Assembly (NCBI GenBank): GCA_000995185.1
Contig: LCET01000001.1
Coordinates: 167,028-213,180 of the forward strand
Origin: Candidatus Woesebacteria bacterium GW2011_GWC1_42_9
GTDB taxonomy: Bacteria > Patescibacteriota > Microgenomatia > UBA8517
Length of the DNA: 46,153 nucleotides
Reading direction: 5' to 3'
Made by a program: the position numbers and the translations under genes. This document shows positions 13,422-23,102 of the stretch, piece by piece. The notes beneath the pieces are model-generated. The model made no database searches, had not been told where the DNA came from, and saw nothing but the letters and a program-made list of their open reading frames with translations. Positions within the stretch are counted from its first letter, which is position 1. Every line of letters begins with the position of its first letter.

Positions 13422-15281
13422 ATGAATATGAGTGAACAAAAAGATAAAAGGAATATTGCCGTTATTGCCCATGTAGACCATGGCAAGACAACACTAGTGG
13501 ATGCTCTTTTGAAACAAACTCATACTTTTCGTGAAAATGAGGAGGAGATGGGGAAGGAGCAAATTATGGATTCAGGCGACCTTGAACGTGAACGAGGGAT
13601 TACTATTTTGGCCAAAAATTGTGCAGTTGATTATAAAAATACGAAGATAAATATTATTGATACGCCTGGTCACGCGGATTTTTCAGGTGAAGTTGAACGA
13701 ACATTAGGAATGGCAGAAGGAGCACTTTTGATCGTGGATGCTCAAGAAGGACCGATGCCGCAAACAAGGTTTGTATTACGGCGTGCTTTGGAACTGGGCT
13801 TAAAGATTATTGTCGTGATTAATAAAATTGATAAAAGGTTTGCTCGCGTTCCTGAATCGGTATCTAAATTGGAAAGCCTTTTTTTAGAATTAGCAAAGGA
13901 TGAGTCTCAGCTTGATTTTCCGATAATTTATGCCATCGGGAGGCGCGGGGTTGCGTTTAATACTTTACCTGAAGATATGGAACAAAAGGGAGATATTACT
14001 CCACTTCTTGATTTGATCATAAGTCATGTACCGGCACCTAAAAATTCTCCTCTGGGGACTTTTAAAATGGTGGTTACTACGCTTGATTATGAGCCTCATC
14101 TTGGACAGATCGCTATCGGTAAAATTTTTAGAGGCAAGCTAGTTAAGGGCGAGAAAGTAATTGTCACTAACTCGCCTGGGAAAATATATAAAGTAGAGAA
14201 GGTTATGGTCCCTCGGGGCCTGGGAAGAGTTGAAGTCGAAGGCGCTGAGGCAGGCGAAATAGTGGCCATAGCCGGCGTTGATAATCTTAAAATTGGCCAA
14301 ACAATTTCTGATCCTAGTGATACGACCCCGCTTCCGGAAATCGCAGTTTCACCACCCACTTTGCATATCACCCTTGGTCCAAATACTTCCCCCCTGGCAG
14401 GCCAGGAAGGAGAGTATTCCACCGGCAGGCAAATTGAGGAAAGACTTAGAAAAGAAATAGAAACAAATCTAAGTTTAAAGGTCGAGGCACTTGGGAACGG
14501 TAAGTTTAAGGTGTCTGGAAGAGGTGAGCTTCATCTGGCGATCTTACTGGAGACTCTTCGGCGTGAAGGCTATGAAATGGAAGTCGGTAAGCCCGAAGTT
14601 ATTCTCAAAAAAATTGATGGAGTACTAAAAGAGCCGGTGGAAGAGGTAAACATTATTGTCCCTCAGGAGTTTGTCGGAGTTATAAATCAAGAAATGGGTA
14701 AACGGTATGCAAAAATTCTTAAAATGGAGGCGATTTCTGAGGAAGAAACAGAATTTATCTATCAATTCCCGACTCGCGCTATGATCGGCCTCCGCGGCCT
14801 ACTTTTAAATCTCACCAAGGGGACAGTTGTCATGAGTTCGCAAGTAATTGCCTATGAAAAAATTGGTCGGGAACTACCAAAATTAAGGCGTGGAGCATTG
14901 ATTTCGCAATCCTCAGGATCTGCTTTGGCTTATAGCCTTGAAACCGCCCAAAATCGAGGGATCACTTTTATCGATCCGGGAGAAACTGTCTATGAAGGGA
15001 TGATCATCGGCCAAAATGCGAAAAACGAAGATATTGAAATAAATGTATGCAAGGGTAAAAAACTGACAAACATGAGGAGTAAATCTTCGGACGGGATTAT
15101 CCAGTTGACCCCAGCCACGAAGCTTTCTTTGGAACAATCGCTTGATTTTCTGGAACGTGATGAGCTATTGGAGATTACCCCAAAGAGTTTGCGCTTAAGA
15201 AAAAAACATCTTACTGTTTTGGCCCGAAGGCGAATAAACCGCGCCGCCCGCTCGAGCCAAGCCACCCAAGCGATGATTTAA
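13422..15281 (+). CDS. typA: TypA/BipA translational GTPase
   Basis: This ribosome-associated GTPase of about 619 residues is related to EF-G. The N-terminal GTPase domain shows A-H-V-D-H-G-K-T-T-L (G1), R-G-I-T-I-L-A (G2), D-T-P-G-H-A-D-F (G3) and N-K-I-D (G4). The BipA-specific C-terminal part includes the G-R-G-E-L-H-L-A-I-L segment and N-V-C-K-G-K-K-L-T-N. Starts at ATG 13422 and ATG 13428 (M-S-E-Q-K-D-K) are both possible; the frame upstream of them runs through the leader hairpin. The stop is followed, with no gap and in the same frame, by repeat fragment C1. Confidence 0.95.
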   Translation: MNMSEQKDKRNIAVIAHVDHGKTTLVDALLKQTHTFRENEEEMGKEQIMDSGDLERERGITILAKNCAVDYKNTKINIIDTPGHADFSGEVERTLGMAEGALLIVDAQEGPMPQTRFVLRRALELGLKIIVVINKIDKRFARVPESVSKLESLFLELAKDESQLDFPIIYAIGRRGVAFNTLPEDMEQKGDITPLLDLIISHVPAPKNSPLGTFKMVVTTLDYEPHLGQIAIGKIFRGKLVKGEKVIVTNSPGKIYKVEKVMVPRGLGRVEVEGAEAGEIVAIAGVDNLKIGQTISDPSDTTPLPEIAVSPPTLHITLGPNTSPLAGQEGEYSTGRQIEERLRKEIETNLSLKVEALGNGKFKVSGRGELHLAILLETLRREGYEMEVGKPEVILKKIDGVLKEPVEEVNIIVPQEFVGVINQEMGKRYAKILKMEAISEEETEFIYQFPTRAMIGLRGLLLNLTKGTVVMSSQVIAYEKIGRELPKLRRGALISQSSGSALAYSLETAQNRGITFIDPGETVYEGMIIGQNAKNEDIEINVCKGKKLTNMRSKSSDGIIQLTPATKLSLEQSLDFLERDELLEITPKSLRLRKKHLTVLARRRINRAARSSQATQAMI

Positions 15282-15512
15282 GAGCTGGTCACCGTACTTT
15301 GCTCGAACCTATTTAGCCAGGATGAGTATATCAAAGGATATCTACTCGACCCCGATTTGCCACTTATTACCAAAGTAAAAATCGGTCTTTACTACTACAT
15401 CACCAGTGACCTTATTTTACAACTAAACGTATTTAAAGACTATCTTGAGAAAATAAATCCATTTCTATTTTTAGAAGTATTTGGTAAACGATGCAAGGAT
15501 CAAAAATATTAA
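15282..15512 (+). pseudogene. Repeat fragment C1 (5'-truncated copy of the gene at 17575)
   Basis: These 76 in-frame codons begin right after the typA stop and have no start codon. The translation (E-L-V-T-V-L-C-S-N-L-F-S-Q-D-E-Y-I-K, ending K-D-Q-K-Y) matches residues 11 to near the end of the ORF at 17575-17844, with a two-codon deletion near the middle. Roughly four of five bases agree by eye over the first half. It is a decayed copy left at a recombination boundary. From here to 15571 I see only a small inverted repeat (TTTGCC/GGCAAA at 15539-15553). Confidence 0.75.
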
Positions 15513-15571
15513 TGAGTGATTAATAATTTCAAGGTTCATTTGCCTTTGGCAAAGTTAACATACCCAAAAAT

Positions 15572-16522
15572 TTAAACTATTTCAACACTTTTATTCCAAT
15601 ATTCATCAAACGCTTTCTTTATTTCATCATAGTTCTCAGTCAGGTTTATTTCTGACCTTTGACCTGACGAAATAGCATTAACGTTTGGTACATTTCTCGC
15701 ATAATCCACATCATCAATAATCCAACGATCGTGAGCATCTCGAACTAGTTTGCTGTCAATGGTAGCCCAGGAAACATCGATATTCTTATTAGCCATTTCT
15801 TGCTTAAATCGTGTAAGATCTTTCCGAGCAGTGGTATTAAGATTGCCTTCGCCCAGGTCTAGGGATATTATGCGTATTTGCTTAATTTTACTAGCATCAG
15901 CAATAGCCCAAAGCCACTCAAGAGCCTCTTTTTGAAAGTGCTTATCAAGCCAGTAGATGCCACCTTCGCATTCACCCAGTACCTTTTTTATCCACATGAT
16001 ATTAGAGAAAGGACGATTAGGATCTATAAATATATTTCTTGGTGTTTGAGGAGAGTCGGGAGAAATCAAAATACGTACAATCCGTGTTTTTTTATTGTAA
16101 TTAATAATTTCCGCATAATTCATGAAGTCTAGCAAATGCGTAAGTGGTTCTCGCGAATCATAAAACCAAAATCCCGTTGTTTTTAGAACCGTTAAAACTT
16201 GCTCAACTGTTATATTGGCAACTCCCCAAAGATATTGTTGTATGGCAATAGTTGGAGGGTAAAATAGAAGCATTTGTTTGAGCAACTCTTTTTCCCCACC
16301 ATCACAACGGATAAAGAGTGACTCAAAAATAGCTCTACCCAATTCAGACAATTCACCAGTTGCCGAATCACTGAAAACACCTAGTTCTTCCCAAAAAAGG
16401 TAGTCGTCTCCTAGATCAAGATGGCTAATCGCCCCAGTTTCGCCAGCAGTTCTTATGTAGGGTAGTACCTTTTTCCAATTAGTTTTTGGGAGAAGTATCG
16501 TCTTTTCTGTTGTTTGACTCAT
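15572..16522 (-). CDS. Putative effector with C-terminal PLD-like (MIT_C-type) HDR motif
   Basis: This 316-residue protein has no membrane segment. The N-terminal 150 residues look helical and may hold a winged-helix fold. The C-terminal half has alternating strand and helix pattern with D-K-H-F-Q-K-E-A-L-E-W-L (193-204), I-R-I-I-S-L-D-L-G (216-224) and the signature R-D-A-H-D-R-W-I-I-D (261-270). A single H-D-R site is what I associate with PLD-like domains such as MIT_C, which occur in several defence effectors. Catalysis is not established. It is the second gene of an operon and overlaps the first by 44 bases. A/T-rich codon use differs from host genes. Confidence 0.5.
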   Translation of the reverse strand: MSQTTEKTILLPKTNWKKVLPYIRTAGETGAISHLDLGDDYLFWEELGVFSDSATGELSELGRAIFESLFIRCDGGEKELLKQMLLFYPPTIAIQQYLWGVANITVEQVLTVLKTTGFWFYDSREPLTHLLDFMNYAEIINYNKKTRIVRILISPDSPQTPRNIFIDPNRPFSNIMWIKKVLGECEGGIYWLDKHFQKEALEWLWAIADASKIKQIRIISLDLGEGNLNTTARKDLTRFKQEMANKNIDVSWATIDSKLVRDAHDRWIIDDVDYARNVPNVNAISSGQRSEINLTENYDEIKKAFDEYWNKSVEIV

Positions 16523-17282
16523 GTTTTTTGATTTCCACTTCTACTGCTTTTTCCAATGCAGACATTTGGTCCCTGAACGTACCCATATTGAAAGCAAATT
16601 GGAGGTTCTTAGGGTACGATAGAGCGATACCACTAGGGAATTCAACTGTAATCATCTCTGGTCGCACATTTGTAATTGGAGCATAACTACCTTTAGTTTC
16701 GTTTTTTAGAGGATTGGCATGAGTTTGTACAGGATCATTATCAATACCAACTTCATCATCCTTAACTAAAATTTCACTTGAGACAATTCCATTCTGATAA
16801 ACACCTGCGTATTCAATGGACTTGCGAAAGATGTTTGCCACGTTATCTGCAACCTTCTGACCAATTTTATGGCTACGCACAAGAATACTGCTTAGTGCAG
16901 TAGGCACTGCATGGCCGGCAAACTCATTAAGAAGCGTCTTGTATAGTTTTGGAGCTGTAACAGCTAACTGTTTAGCTGTTTGGAGATCATTATCGTCAAT
17001 CGGGTGTGCAAAACTGAGGGAGAGGTCAGTATTTCGATAGGCATTGCCTTCTCGACCAAGTAAGCCAAAATGTACAAGAGAGGCAACTTTCATTCCAACT
17101 GGGCCAGTTACTTTTTCATAACCCATTTCCTTAACAGCGTTATCCCTACTAAACGCTGACTTACTAAACGCTGTTTGAAGCTTAGCGCTATAGTTAATAG
17201 CATCTTCAAGCGTAATTGATGGATAAGATGCACTACGTTCTTTTGTTTTCACTTGTTTAGTGGTTGGTTGTTCTTCTGTCAT
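16479..17282 (-). CDS. Putative winged-helix DNA-binding partner protein
   Basis: This 267-residue protein is not assigned to a named family. Residues about 20-160 read Y-P-S-I-T-L-E-D-A-I, K-E-M-G-Y-x-x-V-T-G-P-V-G-M-K-V-A-S-L-V-H-F-G-L-L, then Y-R-N-T-D-L-S-L and H-P. That is a pattern I have seen in hypothetical proteins with a winged-helix-like start. The middle is acidic (V-K-D-D-E-V-G-I-D-N-D), the C-terminus has a strand-rich segment and a charged tail. It is the first gene of a two-gene operon with a good promoter. A regulatory or sensor role next to the PLD-like protein is inference. Confidence 0.5.
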   Translation of the reverse strand: MTEEQPTTKQVKTKERSASYPSITLEDAINYSAKLQTAFSKSAFSRDNAVKEMGYEKVTGPVGMKVASLVHFGLLGREGNAYRNTDLSLSFAHPIDDNDLQTAKQLAVTAPKLYKTLLNEFAGHAVPTALSSILVRSHKIGQKVADNVANIFRKSIEYAGVYQNGIVSSEILVKDDEVGIDNDPVQTHANPLKNETKGSYAPITNVRPEMITVEFPSGIALSYPKNLQFAFNMGTFRDQMSALEKAVEVEIKKHESNNRKDDTSPKN

Positions 17283-17314
17283 AGATTTACTTTCTTTAAT
17301 AACTTTATTTAATC

Positions 17315-17344
17315 ATTTTACATCAGGAAAATACCACTTGTCAA
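17315..17344 (-). promoter_or_regulatory. Promoter of the PLD-like operon
   Basis: Minus strand TTGACA (17344-17339), 18-base spacer, TAAAAT (17320-17315). The leader to ATG 17282 is about 26 bases. Between this promoter and repeat R1 (17345-17465) I see nothing further. Confidence 0.65.
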
Positions 17345-17465
17345 CACTGTTCTATGTGTTGTTCTTTGGCTAGTCTTAACATATCCTGGGTAAAAGATAA
17401 TAATTCGGTATAGTTGTGATAATAATGATATAGAACACTGGTAAATTAATAATTTTGTATTAACT

Positions 17466-17592
17466 CTAGTACGTAGGTCCGACTCCGGTTATCGGTATGA
17501 TTTTTTCCAGGCTAAATATAAGACGTTAAAAATAGTGGCTAGAACTCGGGATAATGTTGATTTATTGAGGGAAATTGGAGAAAACACAAAAC
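17466..17592. repeat. Repeat R1 (partner of R2 at 21800-21925)
   Basis: R1 and R2 align over about 126 bases with two single-base gaps upstream and downstream of an ungapped 44-base core. They share CTAGTAC, CCAGGCTAA, GGCT-GAACTCGGG, AAT-TTGATTT and ACAAAAC, with a diverged centre. Read on the plus strand R1 encodes an open peptide (A-R-T-R-D-N-V-D-L-L-R-E-I-G-E-N-T-K-P-F) that runs into the ORF at 17575 in a neighbouring frame. Confidence 0.7.
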
Positions 17593-17844
17593 CATTTCGC
17601 TATTGAGCTGGTAACCGTAATTGGCTCGGACCTATTTAGCCAGGACGAGTATATCAAACAGTATCTACTCGACCCCGATTCGTCACTTATTACTAAAATA
17701 AAAATAGGTCTTCGTTACTACATTACAACTCAGCCTGAGTTAATTTTACAGCTTACCGTTTTCAAAGGCTACCTGGAGAAAATCAATCCGTTTCTATTTA
17801 TGGAGGTATTCGGTAAAGATCGCGAAGATAGAAAAATATGGTAA
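17575..17844 (+). CDS. Repeat-encoded small protein C2 (possibly frameshifted remnant)
   Basis: This 89-codon frame from TTG 17575 has an unknown product. The body reads I-E-L-V-T-V-I-G-S-D-L-F-S-Q-D-E-Y-I-K, then K-I-K-I-G-L-R-Y-Y-I-T-T-Q-P-E and Y-L-E-K-I-N-P-F-L-F-M-E-V-F-G-K-D; it looks mostly helical and soluble. C1 at 15282 is a truncated copy. No Shine-Dalgarno precedes the TTG. Dropping one C at about 17598 joins it to the R1 peptide (E-N-T-K-P-F then A-I-E-L-V-T-V), so the original gene may have been longer and is now broken. I cannot name a family. Confidence 0.45.
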   Translation: MEKTQNHFAIELVTVIGSDLFSQDEYIKQYLLDPDSSLITKIKIGLRYYITTQPELILQLTVFKGYLEKINPFLFMEVFGKDREDRKIW

Positions 17845-18115
17845 TATTGGGGTACCGAATGATCCCTGTAGTGAAAGTATCTTACTATTAGGGAACTGAC
17901 GACACAAATTCATTTGTGATCCGTACATGAATGATTTTTTGTGTTTAGGGGGAAAGTCTGCGATCAGGAGAGACAAAAACAGGCATATACGAGCCTTTAT
18001 ATGCTGCAGATGAGAGGTATTTGTACCCGCGAGGCGGGTTGGAAGGAGTTTGGGGAGTAAATCCGCCGCGCCAAAAATTTTTTTTAAAACGTAGTAAAAT
18101 CAACTAGAGGTTAAT
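17845..18115 (+). promoter_or_regulatory. Leader region upstream of the EcoRI-like gene
   Basis: No gene is seen here. It holds the left 16-base direct repeat, a perfect small palindrome CACAAATTCATTTGTG (17902-17917), a hairpin ACCCGC/GCGGGT (18025-18039), and an alternative pairing GGCGG (18033-18037) with CCGCC (18063-18067) that is followed by a T-rich run. TAAAAT at 18095-18100 and AGAGG at 18106-18110 would serve the gene at 18116. The alternative hairpins could act as an attenuator; this is inference. Confidence 0.45.
17893..17908. repeat. Left 16-base direct repeat flanking the EcoRI-like module
   Basis: GAACTGACGACACAAA, identical to 19948-19963. The two copies are 2055 bases apart and enclose both restriction-modification genes. 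Confidence 0.8.
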
Positions 18116-18952
18116 ATGGCAAAAAAGAATCAATCTAAAAGATTAACTAATCAACATAAAGAATCCCAAGGTGCAGTTGGTATATTTGGAGACGAGGCAA
18201 AGTTCCACGATACAACAGTTAGTAAAATTTCACATCTTGTAATTGAGCAACTTGAAAATGAATTTCCTAAATTAACTTTTAGGCATAGGACAGCAATAAA
18301 AAAGAATGAGATAAACGAAGCATTAAAGAAAATTGATCCAGAATTAGGGCAAACCCTTTTTGTATCAAATTCAAGCATTATCCCAGACGGCGGAATAATT
18401 GAAGTAAAAGATGATAACGATATTTGGAGAATATTGCTTGTAACAGAAGCTAAGCATCAAGGAAAAGATATTGAAAATATCCAAAAAGGAAATTTAGTTG
18501 GCAAAAATAACAATCAAGACTTGATGGCAGCTGGTAACGCAATAGAAAGATCGCATAAAAATATATCAGAAATCGCCAACTTTATGCTACATGAATCCCA
18601 TTTCCCTTATATCTTATTTTTGGAAGGATCAAATTTTCTTACTGAAACTATTTCAATTAAGAGACCAGATGGAAGGGTGGTTACTCTTGATTATAACTCA
18701 GGCATGTTAAATAGATTAGATAGATTGACTTCTGCAAATTATGGAATGCCAATTAACACAAATTTATGTAAAAATAAATTTGTTAAACACAAAGATAAAA
18801 CCATTATGCTTCAGGCAGCTTCGATATATACGCAAGGTAATGGTGAAAAATGGGATGTAAGAGAAATGCTTGACATTATGATTGAGATTTCAAAAACCTC
18901 TCTTCAGGTATTAGGAAGTGAGATATTTAACCAGATAACTAAAGATAAATAA
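18116..18952 (+). CDS. ecoRIR: EcoRI-type restriction endonuclease (predicted GAATTC)
   Basis: This 278-residue protein is collinear with R.EcoRI (277 residues) from the first residues (K-x-Q-S-x-R-L-T-x-Q-H-K-x-S-Q-G). Catalytic Asp91, Glu111 and Lys113 (P-D-G-G-I at 90-94; T-E-A-K-H at 110-114) lie at the EcoRI numbers, as do the recognition residues in M-A-A-G-N-A (137-142), Glu144-Arg145, and Arg200 and Arg203. R.EcoRI is a homodimer that cuts G/AATTC; the same specificity is therefore expected. The start is ATG with AGAGG upstream. The methylase gene follows after 16 bases. Base composition is more A/T-rich than host genes, which fits acquisition by transfer. Confidence 0.95.
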   Translation: MAKKNQSKRLTNQHKESQGAVGIFGDEAKFHDTTVSKISHLVIEQLENEFPKLTFRHRTAIKKNEINEALKKIDPELGQTLFVSNSSIIPDGGIIEVKDDNDIWRILLVTEAKHQGKDIENIQKGNLVGKNNNQDLMAAGNAIERSHKNISEIANFMLHESHFPYILFLEGSNFLTETISIKRPDGRVVTLDYNSGMLNRLDRLTSANYGMPINTNLCKNKFVKHKDKTIMLQAASIYTQGNGEKWDVREMLDIMIEISKTSLQVLGSEIFNQITKDK

Positions 18953-18968
18953 CCAAAACCATTTGATT

Positions 18969-19988
18969 ATGGCAAGAAAAGCGACAAATAAATTACTGCA
19001 AAAAGCTAAAGAATCAAAGAGCGATGAATTTTACACTCAGCTTTCTGATATTGAAAATGAATTAAAGCATTATAAAGATAGATTTAAAGATAAAGTAGTT
19101 TATTGTAATTGCGATGACCCTAGAACTAGCAACTTTTATGAGTATTTTTCCTCAAATTTCAAAGAGTTGAGGCTAAAAAAAATCATAGCCTCTTGCTACA
19201 GAAAGCAAGAAAGAGATTTATTTAATAATAAAGAATTTGAAAGTGGGTTTTTTTATGAATATTCAGGTACTCAGGGCGAAAAAATAAAACCAAGCGCTAA
19301 TGATATAATCCACTTTAAAGGAGACGGGGATTTTCGTAGTTCAGAAAGTATAGAATTATTGAAACAGGCGGATATTATTGTAACCAATCCACCATTTTCA
19401 TTATTTAGGAAATATGTAGATCAATTAGTTAAATACGATAAGAAATTTTTAATAATTGGCAACATTAACGCTATTACCTATAAAGAAATTTTTAAACTAA
19501 TTAAGGGAAATAAGGCGTGGCTAGGAATAAATTTAGGTAGAGGTATCTCAGGTTTTATTGTGCCAGAACATTATGAACTTTACGGAACAGAGGCACGTAT
19601 TGATAGCCTTGGAAATAGAATAGTTTCCCCAAATAATTGTTTATGGTTAACTAATTTAGATACTTCTAAAAGACATGAAAACATTACTCTTACAAAAAAA
19701 TATTTTGGAAATGAAATCGAGTATCCATATTATGATAACTACGATGGAATTAATGTAAATAGAACAAAAGATATTCCTCTGGATTACGAAGGTGTTTTGG
19801 GCGTACCCATAACTTTTTTACATAAATATAACCCAGAACAATTCGAAATAATTAAATTCAGAAAAGGAAATGATGAAAAGGATTTGTCAATAAACGGTAA
19901 ATGTCCGTATTTTAGAATTTTAATCAAGAAAAGAATACAAAAAAATAGAACTGACGACACAAAAATATTAGTTAGTGATTTGTCTTAG
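18969..19988 (+). CDS. ecoRIM: EcoRI-type adenine methyltransferase with C-terminal extension
   Basis: This 339-residue N6-adenine methyltransferase is collinear with M.EcoRI (326 residues). It starts M-A-R-x-A-T-N-K-L-L, has V-V-Y-C-N-C-D-D-P-R, F-K-G-D-G-D-F-R-S and the catalytic N-P-P-F at 140-143. It methylates the inner adenine of GAATTC and protects host DNA. After the family's usual end (R-I-Q-K) about 14 further residues (N-R-T-D-D-T-K-I-L-V and on) are encoded by sequence containing the right 16-base direct repeat. ATG 18969 matches the family start; a TTG two codons upstream is less likely. Confidence 0.95.
   Translation: MARKATNKLLQKAKESKSDEFYTQLSDIENELKHYKDRFKDKVVYCNCDDPRTSNFYEYFSSNFKELRLKKIIASCYRKQERDLFNNKEFESGFFYEYSGTQGEKIKPSANDIIHFKGDGDFRSSESIELLKQADIIVTNPPFSLFRKYVDQLVKYDKKFLIIGNINAITYKEIFKLIKGNKAWLGINLGRGISGFIVPEHYELYGTEARIDSLGNRIVSPNNCLWLTNLDTSKRHENITLTKKYFGNEIEYPYYDNYDGINVNRTKDIPLDYEGVLGVPITFLHKYNPEQFEIIKFRKGNDEKDLSINGKCPYFRILIKKRIQKNRTDDTKILVSDLS
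19948..19963. repeat. Right 16-base direct repeat, inside the methylase 3' end
   Basis: GAACTGACGACACAAA, identical to 17893-17908. It encodes part of the methylase tail that has no counterpart in M.EcoRI. Confidence 0.8.
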
Positions 19989-20026
19989 CCATAGGGGTCG
20001 CCTTTTTAGAGAAATAGTTAAGATTC

Positions 20027-20518
20027 TTATTCTCCCAACTCTCCAGTAGTTCTAATTGGATCACCTATCAAAATCGAGTGAAACTCATCCTCTGGCAAAC
20101 GTTCTCTTTTAAATACTTGCCATCCTAAGTCGTAAACCGTCTTCATATTCCAAATGTGATGTTTGTGTAATGTAACTAGATCGTGTAAATAAATGGCTCC
20201 AGGAGCATTTTCGCTCTCTATTATTCTAAACTTATTGCCGTATTCATTAATTGGATACTTTTCTCGGTAATACTTAATGCTTCTTTTCCGTGCCAGTTCA
20301 TCTCTAAAATAAGAACTACCAAAATATGCACCAATGATAGCTGCTAAACCAATACTAATTTTGTTGAAGTTGTCAGCTATTGCATTTAGATTTTCTAAGG
20401 GGAGAAAAAAATGGGCAAGTACAAAGATTAAGAAGGATATAATCAGGAAAGCCTTGTAGGTTTGGACCTGTTTTCTGAATTTTTTCCAATTTTTCTTAAA
20501 CCTTTTCTTGTTTAACAT
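20027..20518 (-). CDS. Two-helix membrane protein downstream of nuclease
   Basis: This 163-residue protein is not recognised. A very basic N-terminus (K-K-R-F-K-K-N-W-K-K-F-R-K) precedes two membrane segments (about 22-41 and 53-70), followed by a cytoplasmic domain of about 90 residues with Y-Y-R-E-K-Y-P, H-D-L-V-T-L-H-K-H-H and a C-terminal R-L-P-E-D-E-F. It starts 8 bases after the nuclease gene ends, so both are one operon. A role as membrane partner of the nuclease is inferred from linkage only. Confidence 0.55.
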   Translation of the reverse strand: MLNKKRFKKNWKKFRKQVQTYKAFLIISFLIFVLAHFFLPLENLNAIADNFNKISIGLAAIIGAYFGSSYFRDELARKRSIKYYREKYPINEYGNKFRIIESENAPGAIYLHDLVTLHKHHIWNMKTVYDLGWQVFKRERLPEDEFHSILIGDPIRTTGELGE

Positions 20519-20526
20519 ATTTATTT

Positions 20527-21762
20527 TTATGGAAAATGAAACAGCAATACAGTAAGTAGCAATTCTCTTTTCGTGTCGACATTCAGGTGAAATCTGAATC
20601 TTTGTATTGTTCCTTCTGCTTCTTCACTCTCTAAATTTATAAAGTTACTATGCTTTTTTGCAGCTTCTCTTGCCGTAGTTATTACATTAGTGAAGTCAGC
20701 ATTTCTTACGAAGACCATAATTGAGGCTTTAGAATCTCTCCAAGTAAGATATTTGAGTATTTGGTCGATAGTTTCAATAAACTTCTTTTCCCCTGTCCAA
20801 AATTTGCACTCGGCAATAAAAGTGTTATTTCCGTCATGTCTAAGTAAAATATCTGTTTTACCCGATTTATTGAACGTTTCACCCGTAGCTGATCCTTCAA
20901 AGTTGGTTTCTAGAATTATTAGAAAATGATCTCGCAGTCCTTCTTCATCTTTGTTGGTATAAACAGCCGGCATTCTTTCAATCTGTTTTCCCATATCGTG
21001 GATAACACGAAGTATTGCGTTATATGTTTCAGTATCTAGAGTTGGATCTGGGGTTCCAGAATTGCTTGGAGATGGTCTCGGAATAATTTTCTTTTTAGCT
21101 TTCGGAGCAGGAATAGAAAATGTGCTCGGAACGTTATCTCTTTTTTTGACGGGGACACCCAACTGGTCCAAGAAACTATTATTAGATTTCAAGCTTTCTT
21201 TTCTTTCCTTAAGCAACATCCTAGCATTCTCTGATAAGCTTGCATTGTAATTATTTACTTCGTTTGCAAGATTTCCAAGCTGTTTTTGTAAATTGGAAAG
21301 ATTTTGGTCTGAGTCTCTTTTTGTTTTTTCGGCATCATTGGTGAAGTTAATAATCTCAAAACATAAAAACTCTCCATCATCATTAATTTCATGATCAAGC
21401 TCGATGGTCCATAGAAGTGATGTACTTGGTTTGAAGTTTATTACTTCAATCTCGCCGTTGAAGGGTAAGTGGTATTTAATAGCTTGCCTTGGATAAGATT
21501 TATTGTCAGTAATAAAAAAACTTTCTCGAGGATGTCTGTCAGCAGGAATCATTTTTTCTTCATGGGTTATAAACTTGTTTTCGATATCTAGTATTGGAGG
21601 ATCTATAGAAAACTCAGAAACTAAATGTTCAACATATTCATTCTCGTTTATATTCAGAATGTAGCCTGTCTCTTCTGAGTGAATTTTGTTTTTGAGTTTC
21701 TCCTTTTGGGAGCGCAAAACATCTCCAAAATACCCTTTAGTGAAGGGAGTAATAGTACTCAT
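20527..21762 (-). CDS. PD-(D/E)XK nuclease-like protein, putative defence effector
   Basis: This 411-residue protein has an N-terminal domain (about 30-180) with Y-H-L-P-F-N-G and I-N-F-K-P-S-T-S, then a coiled-coil-like stretch (150-200), a basic proline/serine linker (212-240) and a C-terminal nuclease fold. Catalytic residues are visible: Glu275 in E-E-G-L-R-D-H, Asp304 in G-K-T-D-I-L-L and E-C-K at 318-320, in the order E...D...ExK. I recall similar N-terminal halves fused to nucleases in hypothetical proteins but cannot name the family. It is the first gene of a two-gene operon next to the EcoRI-like pair; an anti-phage role is inference. Confidence 0.65.
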   Translation of the reverse strand: MSTITPFTKGYFGDVLRSQKEKLKNKIHSEETGYILNINENEYVEHLVSEFSIDPPILDIENKFITHEEKMIPADRHPRESFFITDNKSYPRQAIKYHLPFNGEIEVINFKPSTSLLWTIELDHEINDDGEFLCFEIINFTNDAEKTKRDSDQNLSNLQKQLGNLANEVNNYNASLSENARMLLKERKESLKSNNSFLDQLGVPVKKRDNVPSTFSIPAPKAKKKIIPRPSPSNSGTPDPTLDTETYNAILRVIHDMGKQIERMPAVYTNKDEEGLRDHFLIILETNFEGSATGETFNKSGKTDILLRHDGNNTFIAECKFWTGEKKFIETIDQILKYLTWRDSKASIMVFVRNADFTNVITTAREAAKKHSNFINLESEEAEGTIQRFRFHLNVDTKRELLLTVLLFHFP

Positions 21763-21799
21763 AATTGGATCTGATATTAGCAGAAATCTACATTGACTG

Positions 21800-21925
21800 C
21801 TAGTACAGGTTCGATTCCCGTTACCAGTGTTGCGACTCTCCAGGCTAACGCAATTTTTGCAAAATATAAGGCTCGAACTCGGGAGAATCTTGATTTTAGG
21901 GGGAGATTTTTAACTACTACAAAAC
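21800..21925. repeat. Repeat R2 (partner of R1), with tRNA-like edge
   Basis: R2 aligns with R1 (17466-17592). Its left part contains GGTTCGATTCCCGT (21808-21821), which is identical, in inverted orientation, to the T-arm of the neighbouring tRNA-Gly (21947-21960). R1 has a degraded form of it. Unlike R1 it is not followed by the C sequence. The stretch 21763-21935 otherwise holds no gene; open frames here are by-products of the tRNA-like sequence. Confidence 0.65.
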
Positions 21926-21935
21926 TAGTCCGATA

Positions 21936-22009
21936 TGGAGCGGGATACGGGAATCGAACCCGTGTCTCTACCTTGGGAAGGTGGCGTACTACCATTGTAC
22001 TAATCCCGC
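21936..22009 (-). tRNA. tRNA-Gly (anticodon CCC)
   Basis: Acceptor GCGGGAT pairs with ATCCCGC, D-stem GTAC with GTAC, and the anticodon loop is TTCCCAA. The anticodon stem CCACC/GGTAG has one C-A mismatch. The T-arm is ACGGGTTCGATTCCCGT. CCA is encoded at 21938-21936, unlike the other clear tRNAs in this window. Confidence 0.93.
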
Positions 22010-22021
22010 TTAGGCAGGTAA

Positions 22022-22030
22022 ATTATAACA
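22022..22030 (-). promoter_or_regulatory. tRNA-Gly promoter (extended -10)
   Basis: Minus strand TGT then TATAAT (22027-22022), 12 bases before the tRNA, located just past the lysM-gene stop. Confidence 0.6.
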
Positions 22031-22032
22031 TC

Positions 22033-22638
22033 TTAAGGTAATACAAACACATTCCCGGGATGAATAAGATCGGGGCTCGTCAGTTTGTTTGCCCTGGCAA
22101 TTTCTACCCATTTATATCCATTCCCATATTGAGCTACCGCTATATCCCAAAGCGTGTCCCCTTTTACAACAGTGTATGAGGAGGAAGTTGTGAGTCCTCC
22201 TTTTGTCGTTGTGGGAGCAATTTCTGGTGTCGCTGAGGGCTGTGGTGTAGCTACGGCCACTGCTGTCGCCTCTGGGGTGGCTACCTCTGCCACTTCGGAG
22301 GTCCTAGCAGGGACGTTTGGAACAACGAGCGTCTGTCCTTCAGCAATATCGTCGGCGCTTGTTAGATTATTTTCTTCCACGATATCCACCCAGTTATATC
22401 CAGTTTTATAATACTTTTCGGAGATAGACCAAAGTGTTTCTCCGCGGACTACTGTGTGAGTAGCCGGAAGAGTTACTTCGTCACTAACTGAAACTCCTGA
22501 GGGAAGAGTGGTTCCAGAATCTAAATTGCGGAAGTAGTTAACTACTAAAACGCCAACTACAACGATAACAAAAATTCCCAAAATAGTGCTGATGCTCGAC
22601 TCGTTTAGTTTAAAGATCTTAAGTAATGATTTAAGCAA
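22033..22638 (-). CDS. Membrane-anchored protein with two LysM domains
   Basis: This 201-residue protein has one membrane segment (about 17-36), a first LysM (H-T-V-V-R-G-E-T-L-W-S-I-S-E-K-Y-Y, near 61-77), a proline/alanine/threonine linker and a C-terminal LysM (S-Y-T-V-V-K-G-D-T-L-W-D-I-A, near 149-162). LysM modules bind peptidoglycan GlcNAc, so it probably links membrane and wall. The start is a TTG with a strong AAGGAGGTG eight bases upstream. It lies between tRNA-Asp and tRNA-Gly on the same strand. Confidence 0.88.
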   Translation of the reverse strand: MLKSLLKIFKLNESSISTILGIFVIVVVGVLVVNYFRNLDSGTTLPSGVSVSDEVTLPATHTVVRGETLWSISEKYYKTGYNWVDIVEENNLTSADDIAEGQTLVVPNVPARTSEVAEVATPEATAVAVATPQPSATPEIAPTTTKGGLTTSSSYTVVKGDTLWDIAVAQYGNGYKWVEIARANKLTSPDLIHPGNVFVLP

Positions 22639-22778
22639 ATTTATTCACCTCCTTGTAGGGCAATTAACTTAAATGAATCTAATGATTTAGTTTGATATTG
22701 TCAAGTAGTGATTTTGCCGATCTTTCCATCACTTTAATGGATTAAAGTATTGAGGGGATAAAGATGATTTTATATGGG

Positions 22779-22852
22779 CGAGGCTGAGGGGATTTGAACC
22801 CCTGATCTCTTCCGTGACAGGGAAGCGCTTTAAACCGCTAAGCTACAGCCCC
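22779..22852 (-). tRNA. tRNA-Asp (anticodon GTC)
   Basis: Acceptor GGGGCTG pairs with CAGCCTC (one G-T), and anticodon stem CTTCC with GGAAG around CTGTCAC. The T-arm is AGGGGTTCAAATCCCCT. Discriminator G and C38 agree with known Asp identity elements. CCA is not encoded. A TACAAT -10 lies 12 bases upstream on the minus strand. The Asp-like tRNA at 34751 differs in these identity positions. Confidence 0.93.
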
Positions 22853-22919
22853 AAAACACCTTATTGTACAATTTTTAGCCTAATTATTCCAGAATTTAAA
22901 AAAAAGGGGGGGTTGAGGT

Positions 22920-23102
22920 TCAGGCGGTTTCAGCTTTTTCGGCTTCCTTTTCTTTTGCTATTCTTTCTCTGGCGAAATGTCCATGGCCATATCCATAGAG
23001 AGAACAAACAATATCTCCCAATGAGTTTATGACCATCTTGCCTGGATTGATCTTATCCTTGGCTACGCAGTCCTCGCAAACAGACCCAATTTGAGGTGTC
23101 AT
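22920..23102 (-). CDS. Small CxxC hypothetical protein
   Basis: This 60-residue protein starts M-T-P-Q-I-G-S and has C-E-D-C at about residues 9-12, a single C at 33, Y-G-Y-G-H-G-H, and a charged alanine/glutamate/lysine tail. A GGAGG lies 7 bases before ATG 23102, which is preferred to the upstream ATG at 23147. Function is unknown. Metal binding by the cysteines and histidines is possible but not shown. No clear terminator follows, only a C-run and T-run without a stem. Confidence 0.6.
   Translation of the reverse strand: MTPQIGSVCEDCVAKDKINPGKMVINSLGDIVCSLYGYGHGHFARERIAKEKEAEKAETA

What the first reader, a model, noticed from the sequence alone, without database searches (positions are those of the whole stretch)
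18116..19988. A complete EcoRI-type restriction-modification pair in a CPR-like chromosome
The endonuclease keeps EcoRI numbering exactly at Asp91, Glu111, Lys113, the M-A-A-G-N-A strand (137-142), Glu144, Arg145, Arg200 and Arg203, and the methylase keeps N-P-P-F and the whole M.EcoRI frame. GAATTC specificity is therefore predicted. EcoRI comes from an enterobacterial plasmid; a near-collinear relative in this background implies distant horizontal transfer. I saw GAATTC in host genes (for example at 1340, 3538, 5403, 16638, 34046, 34387), so the host must be methylated if the nuclease is active.
Basis: partly seen in the sequence, partly recalled or inferred. Interest (0 to 1): 0.75.

Follow-up and report, generated by a model that had tools for sequence, protein, structure and literature searches.

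The report
EcoRI-type restriction system in Patescibacteria
A tiny Patescibacteria (CPR) genome carries an intact copy of the textbook EcoRI DNA-cutting and DNA-protecting gene pair; its closest relatives are in other Patescibacteria rather than on the E. coli plasmid, so it is an ordinary defence system in an unusual host that was acquired by horizontal transfer.

Summary
Window 18116-18952 encodes a 278-aa EcoRI-family endonuclease with every catalytic and recognition residue at EcoRI's own numbering; 18969-19988 encodes its M.EcoRI-family methylase. Both are open and under purifying selection (dN/dS about 0.1). GAATTC specificity is well supported: RsrI, only 50% identical to EcoRI, still cuts G/AATTC.

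The origin story needs correcting. The pair is 83-93% identical to copies in other Patescibacteria and about 73% to enterobacterial EcoRI. Patescibacterial copies form one clade in both trees (M: 100/99); enterobacterial plasmid EcoRI is a separate long branch among mostly Bacteroidota copies. It is sporadic: 1 of 50 family genomes, 2 of 380 phylum genomes.

GAATTC is not specifically avoided in the host (51 observed, 55.8 expected on a 213-kb contig), so methylation must protect about 183 sites if the nuclease is active. The low-GC cassette is bracketed by the genome's only two copies of a 16-bp repeat, a probable insertion footprint. Own-flank repeats recur around the pair (10 of 52 loci, against 0.7% for mismatched flanks).

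A new member of a known kind, of modest interest. A second M.EcoRI-family methylase, paired with a GmrSD_N-HNH nuclease, lies elsewhere in the genome.

The parts
18116..18952 (+). EcoRI-family type II restriction endonuclease (278 aa), PD-(D/E)XK, predicted to cut G/AATTC
   Evidence: PF02963 E 3.4e-148; PDB 1ckq E 1.7e-132; all key residues kept; dN/dS about 0.1 against CPR copies
18969..19988 (+). M.EcoRI-family adenine methyltransferase (339 aa from ATG; in-frame TTG at 18963), predicted to methylate GAATTC
   Evidence: PF13651 E 2e-128; PADLOC MTase_II E 9e-150; putative recognition segment 188-231 is 91% identical to E. coli M.EcoRI
19945..19988 (+). locus-specific 3' extension of the methylase reading frame (about 14 codons plus stop), read from sequence beyond the shared cassette end
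   Evidence: relatives share sequence up to ...IQKN and then diverge; tails differ between loci
17893..17908 (+). left copy of 16-bp direct repeat GAACTGACGACACAAA flanking the cassette
   Evidence: only two exact copies in the 894-kb genome; mismatched-flank control
19948..19963 (+). right copy of the 16-bp direct repeat, overlapping the methylase tail
17909..19947 (+). inferred inserted unit: about 207 bp of leader plus R and M up to the cassette end; coding part 30% GC against 41% in the window
   Evidence: repeat positions; GC and GC3; flanks have no match in relatives
18106..18110 (+). Shine-Dalgarno-like AGAGG, 5 nt before the R start codon
   Evidence: sequence

Best explanation
It is an intact type II restriction-modification system of the EcoRI family in the chromosome of a Patescibacteria (CPR) bacterium. 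M methylates an adenine in each GAATTC (inferred from M.EcoRI) and so protects the roughly 183 sites of the host. R dimers cut unmethylated incoming GAATTC between G and A (inferred from EcoRI). The pair would act as phage and plasmid defence and as a post-segregational killing module. It reached this genome horizontally, from a lineage of EcoRI systems that circulates among Patescibacteria, by insertion of a roughly 2-kb unit that left a 16-bp direct repeat (inferred).
For: Shown: family membership of both proteins; all catalytic and recognition residues kept, D91, E111, K113, N141, E144, R145, R200 and R203 being invariant in 56 family members; R then M in the same order and on the same strand in nearly all relatives with both genes; dN/dS 0.06-0.11 for both genes; patescibacterial clade in the R tree (8 rows, 94/81) and the M tree (9 rows, 100/99); only 1 of 50 family genomes and 2 of 380 phylum genomes have R; coding GC 30% against 41%; two exact copies of the 16-mer in the genome, both flanking the cassette; 183 GAATTC in the genome. 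From literature: RsrI, 50% identical to EcoRI, cuts G/AATTC, and LraI is an EcoRI isoschizomer from an EcoRI-like R-M pair (PMC5896346, PMC4081073), so a 73%-identical enzyme with all contacts kept should do so too.
Against: No methylation, expression or cleavage data. GAATTC is not significantly depleted beyond a maximum-order Markov expectation (51 against 55.8), so there is no sign of long-term restriction pressure. The methylase carries an odd C-terminal tail of about 14 residues whose effect is unknown. The repeat could in principle predate the insertion or belong to the donor; no empty site was available.
Confidence: 0.88

Rival explanations
1. The pair is intact by sequence but functionally silent, or acts through methylation only: R is not expressed or is inactive, and M alone marks the genome.
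For: Broken or frame-shifted R copies exist in relatives (L051, L053, L054, L055, L057, L064). There is no GAATTC avoidance.
Against: R is full length with all key residues and dN/dS of about 0.1 against its CPR relatives.
Confidence: 0.1
2. The pair entered directly from an enterobacterial EcoRI plasmid.
For: About 73% R identity to E. coli EcoRI.
Against: The CPR copies are much closer (R 87-91%) and form their own clade; enterobacterial copies form a long separate branch, near Saprospiraceae copies in the R tree.
Confidence: 0.02
3. Assembly chimera or contamination: the segment belongs to another organism in the sample.
For: GC differs sharply, and no other sampled genome of the family has R.
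Against: It is embedded in a 213-kb contig with ordinary chromosomal genes on both sides; its best relatives are patescibacterial; the junction repeat is 16 bp, shorter than usual assembly overlaps.
Confidence: 0.04
4. The 16-bp repeat is a chance feature or part of an older repeat array, not the footprint of insertion of the R-M unit.
For: The neighbouring region holds other repeats (15282-15509 / 17605-17839).
Against: Only two exact copies in 894 kb, both at the cassette edges. Of 300 mismatched flank pairs, all but one shared at most 14 bp (one gave 33). 10 of 52 loci have own-flank repeats against 0.7% of cross pairs.
Confidence: 0.25

Closest known systems
EcoRI R-M system (R.EcoRI, PDB 1CKQ/1ERI; M.EcoRI)
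   Same: Same two proteins, order and strand; all catalytic and recognition residues at the same numbering; R about 73% and M about 72% identical
   Different: Chromosomal in a Patescibacteria genome rather than on a small plasmid; methylase carries a C-terminal tail
EcoRI-family pairs in other Patescibacteria (Levybacteria L003, Staskawiczbacteria L001, Kaiserbacteria L004, Moraniibacteriota L007, Peregrinibacteria L008; genome contigs)
   Same: R 87-91% and M 83-87% identical, same clade, same R-spacer-M layout
   Different: Different chromosomal surroundings and methylase tails; L004, L005 and L008 share about 200 bp of leader, and L004 and L008 share downstream sequence, not present here
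RsrI and LraI (characterised EcoRI isoschizomers)
   Same: EcoRI homologues with G/AATTC specificity (PMC5896346, PMC4081073)
   Different: More divergent (RsrI 50% to EcoRI). Neither was compared here by sequence.

Membership tests
EcoRI-type type II R-M system | Endonuclease homologous to EcoRI over its full length (PF02963) | tested here: met
   Profile 1-257 of 257, E 3.4e-148
EcoRI-type type II R-M system | PD-(D/E)XK catalytic residues D91, E111, K113 | tested here: met
EcoRI-type type II R-M system | Recognition residues M137-A142, E144, R145, R200, R203 | tested here: met
   Identical to EcoRI; N141, E144, R145, R200, R203 invariant in 56 members
EcoRI-type type II R-M system | Adjacent M.EcoRI-family adenine methylase (PF13651, NPPF) | tested here: met
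EcoRI-type type II R-M system | Cuts G/AATTC and methylates GAATTC | not testable with these tools
   Inferred from residues and from isoschizomers at lower identity
EcoRI-type type II R-M system | Intragenic and reverse promoters that regulate R and M, as in E. coli EcoRI | not tested
   Described for EcoRI (PMC3874152); the promoter scan on hand covers only sigma-70-type consensus and was not run
R-M unit inserted with target duplication (Kobayashi type) | Direct repeat at both edges of the R-M unit | tested here: met
   16-bp exact repeat, unique in the genome; insertion with target duplication is described for R-M systems in PMC3031569
R-M unit inserted with target duplication (Kobayashi type) | Empty site with a single repeat copy in a close relative | not tested
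   No second genome of the genus was found among those searched
Integron gene cassette | attC sites flanking the genes | tested here: not met
   None by a crude consensus-plus-hairpin scan of window 14000-23000, while relative L018 has one on each side

The most novel reading that the evidence does not exclude
EcoRI-family R-M pairs travel as a compact cassette whose right edge lies at the last codons of the methylase, so that the methylase stop codon and C-terminal tail come from the insertion site. The cassette moves between phyla by several routes (integron attC sites in some hosts, insertion with direct repeats in Patescibacteria), and the E. coli plasmid version is a late offshoot.
Probability: 0.3. 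Interest if true: 0.45.

Novelty: new member of a known kind. Interest (0 to 1): 0.27.

Why it matters
It places the best-studied restriction enzyme in a natural setting far from Enterobacteria, with a patescibacterial sub-lineage passed between different CPR groups. It gives a concrete, checkable methylation prediction (6mA at GAATTC) for uncultured bacteria, useful for linking CPR genomes to plasmids or phages by methylation. It also adds to evidence that R-M pairs move as self-contained units.

Tried and rejected
GAATTC avoidance as a sign of activity: looked strong by dinucleotide shuffles (6 against 23.7 in the window) but fell to an O/E of 0.91 on the 213-kb contig with a maximum-order Markov model, rank 27 of 64 palindromes; rejected. 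Integron cassette for the window copy: no attC-like site and no stable hairpin at either edge; rejected here, though supported for L018. Flank similarity between the window and relatives: none. L052 in the exact-repeat list is an artefact because M precedes R there, so it was left out of the final count. Literature on EcoRI in CPR: no paper in the held library has all three terms. A solved structure for the methylase: none found by sequence.

Full report
OBSERVATION. R (18116-18952) translates to 278 aa and matches the whole of Pfam EcoRI and solved EcoRI structures from end to end. With Met as residue 1, D91, E111, K113, M137, A138, A139, G140, N141, A142, E144, R145, R200 and R203 all stand at the quoted numbers and are the same in an E. 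coli plasmid EcoRI (L078). Across 56 family members D91, E111, K113, N141, E144, R145, R200 and R203 never vary. M starts at ATG 18969 (TTG 18963 is also in frame) and matches PF13651. The six GAATTC sites are exact and complete.

SPECIFICITY. The R residues that contact DNA in EcoRI are kept. RsrI, only 50% identical to EcoRI, cuts the same site, and LraI is another EcoRI isoschizomer whose methylase protects DNA from EcoRI (PMC5896346 and PMC4081073). The window R, about 73% identical to EcoRI, is closer to EcoRI than RsrI is. In M, the segment 188-231 is 91% identical to E. coli M.EcoRI, more than the rest of the protein, while methylases of the same family paired with another nuclease fall to 30-45% there (one, L069, to 70%). 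This segment is plausibly part of target recognition (inference). GAATTC specificity is therefore well supported but not shown.

IS IT FUNCTIONAL? Both genes are open and intact. dN/dS against CPR copies is 0.09-0.11 for R and 0.06-0.09 for M, so both have been under selection along these branches. Several relatives have broken or partial R genes, so intactness is not a given. GAATTC is not avoided: contig C1 has 51, against 55.8 from a maximum-order Markov model, and the genome has 183, at the low end of but within its family's range. If R is active, M must protect about 183 sites.

HOST AND ORIGIN. The pair sits within a 213-kb contig of an 894-kb genome, among ordinary chromosomal genes such as typA. 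R occurs in 1 of 50 family genomes and 2 of 380 phylum genomes, so it is sporadic. Coding GC is 30% against 41% for the window. In the R tree the window groups with seven patescibacterial copies (94/81). In the M tree it groups with eight rows, seven patescibacterial and one from an unnamed uncultured bacterium (100/99). These come from different CPR groups, so the system has probably passed between them. Enterobacterial plasmid copies are a separate long branch among mostly Bacteroidota sequences. The sampling behind the trees started from the window protein and keeps only places that share a short peptide with it, so it favours near relatives and is not a census of the family.

HOW IT GOT THERE. 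Similarity to relatives covers R to the last codons of M and stops; the window's flanks match none of them. In the window the shared part ends at ...IQKN and the frame runs on for about 14 codons of unrelated sequence; tails differ widely between loci, median 14 residues beyond residue 322. A 16-bp sequence, GAACTGACGACACAAA, occurs exactly twice in the genome, at window 17893 and 19948, bracketing the unit. Of 300 mismatched flank pairs from different loci only one shared more than 14 bp. Repeats between a locus's own two flanks are found in 10 of 52 loci against 0.7% of cross-locus pairs, with exact repeats of 53 bp (L048) and 97 bp (L012). R-M systems are known to insert with variable target duplications and to ride on integrons and other elements (PMC3031569). 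One relative, L018 from a Desulfamplus MAG, lies between two attC-like sites; the window has none. Insertion with a 16-bp target duplication is the best reading for the window, but no empty site was available.

VERDICT. The finding is real and mostly well read. It is a new member of a known family in a less usual host. The enterobacterial-transfer emphasis is not supported. The more interesting side is the mobility of the unit and the second, differently paired M.EcoRI-like methylase in the same genome.

Noticed in passing
L075:1120-3325 (G000:C1:142339-144544); also L069, L070, L071, L072: A second M.EcoRI-family methylase (about 51% identical) directly followed by a GmrSD_N-HNH nuclease, in the same genome; similar pairs occur in G011, G030, G031 and G032. 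Its 188-231 segment is only 30% identical to the window M, suggesting another target. PADLOC scores the nuclease as a type II REase.
   Followed up: partly
L018:5885-5965 and L018:7870-7950: attC-like sites on both sides of the EcoRI pair in a Desulfamplus MAG, suggesting it is an integron gene cassette there; L030 also has attC-like sites upstream.
   Followed up: partly
window 20527-21762 (-): Full-length match to PADLOC candidate defence family PDC-S54 (E 1.4e-139), next to the R-M pair; with tRNA-Gly at 21936-22009 the stretch 15.5-22 kb looks like a small defence island.
   Followed up: no
window 15282-15509 and 17605-17839: Two 80%-identical copies of what looks like a coding remnant (about 75-89 codons) flank a two-gene block of unknown function (15572-17282, minus strand); no family match for the remnant, no other copy in the genome.
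   Followed up: partly
G000:C1 (213 kb): CACGTG, GGTACC and GAGCTC are the most under-represented 6-bp palindromes (O/E 0.37, 0.42, 0.55 by maximum-order Markov), hinting at other past or present restriction systems.
   Followed up: no
L080:2501-5825 (Rhodococcus plasmid): An EcoRI pair is followed by a DUF262 (GmrSD_N-type) gene, echoing the methylase-GmrSD_N pairing seen in the window's genome.
   Followed up: no
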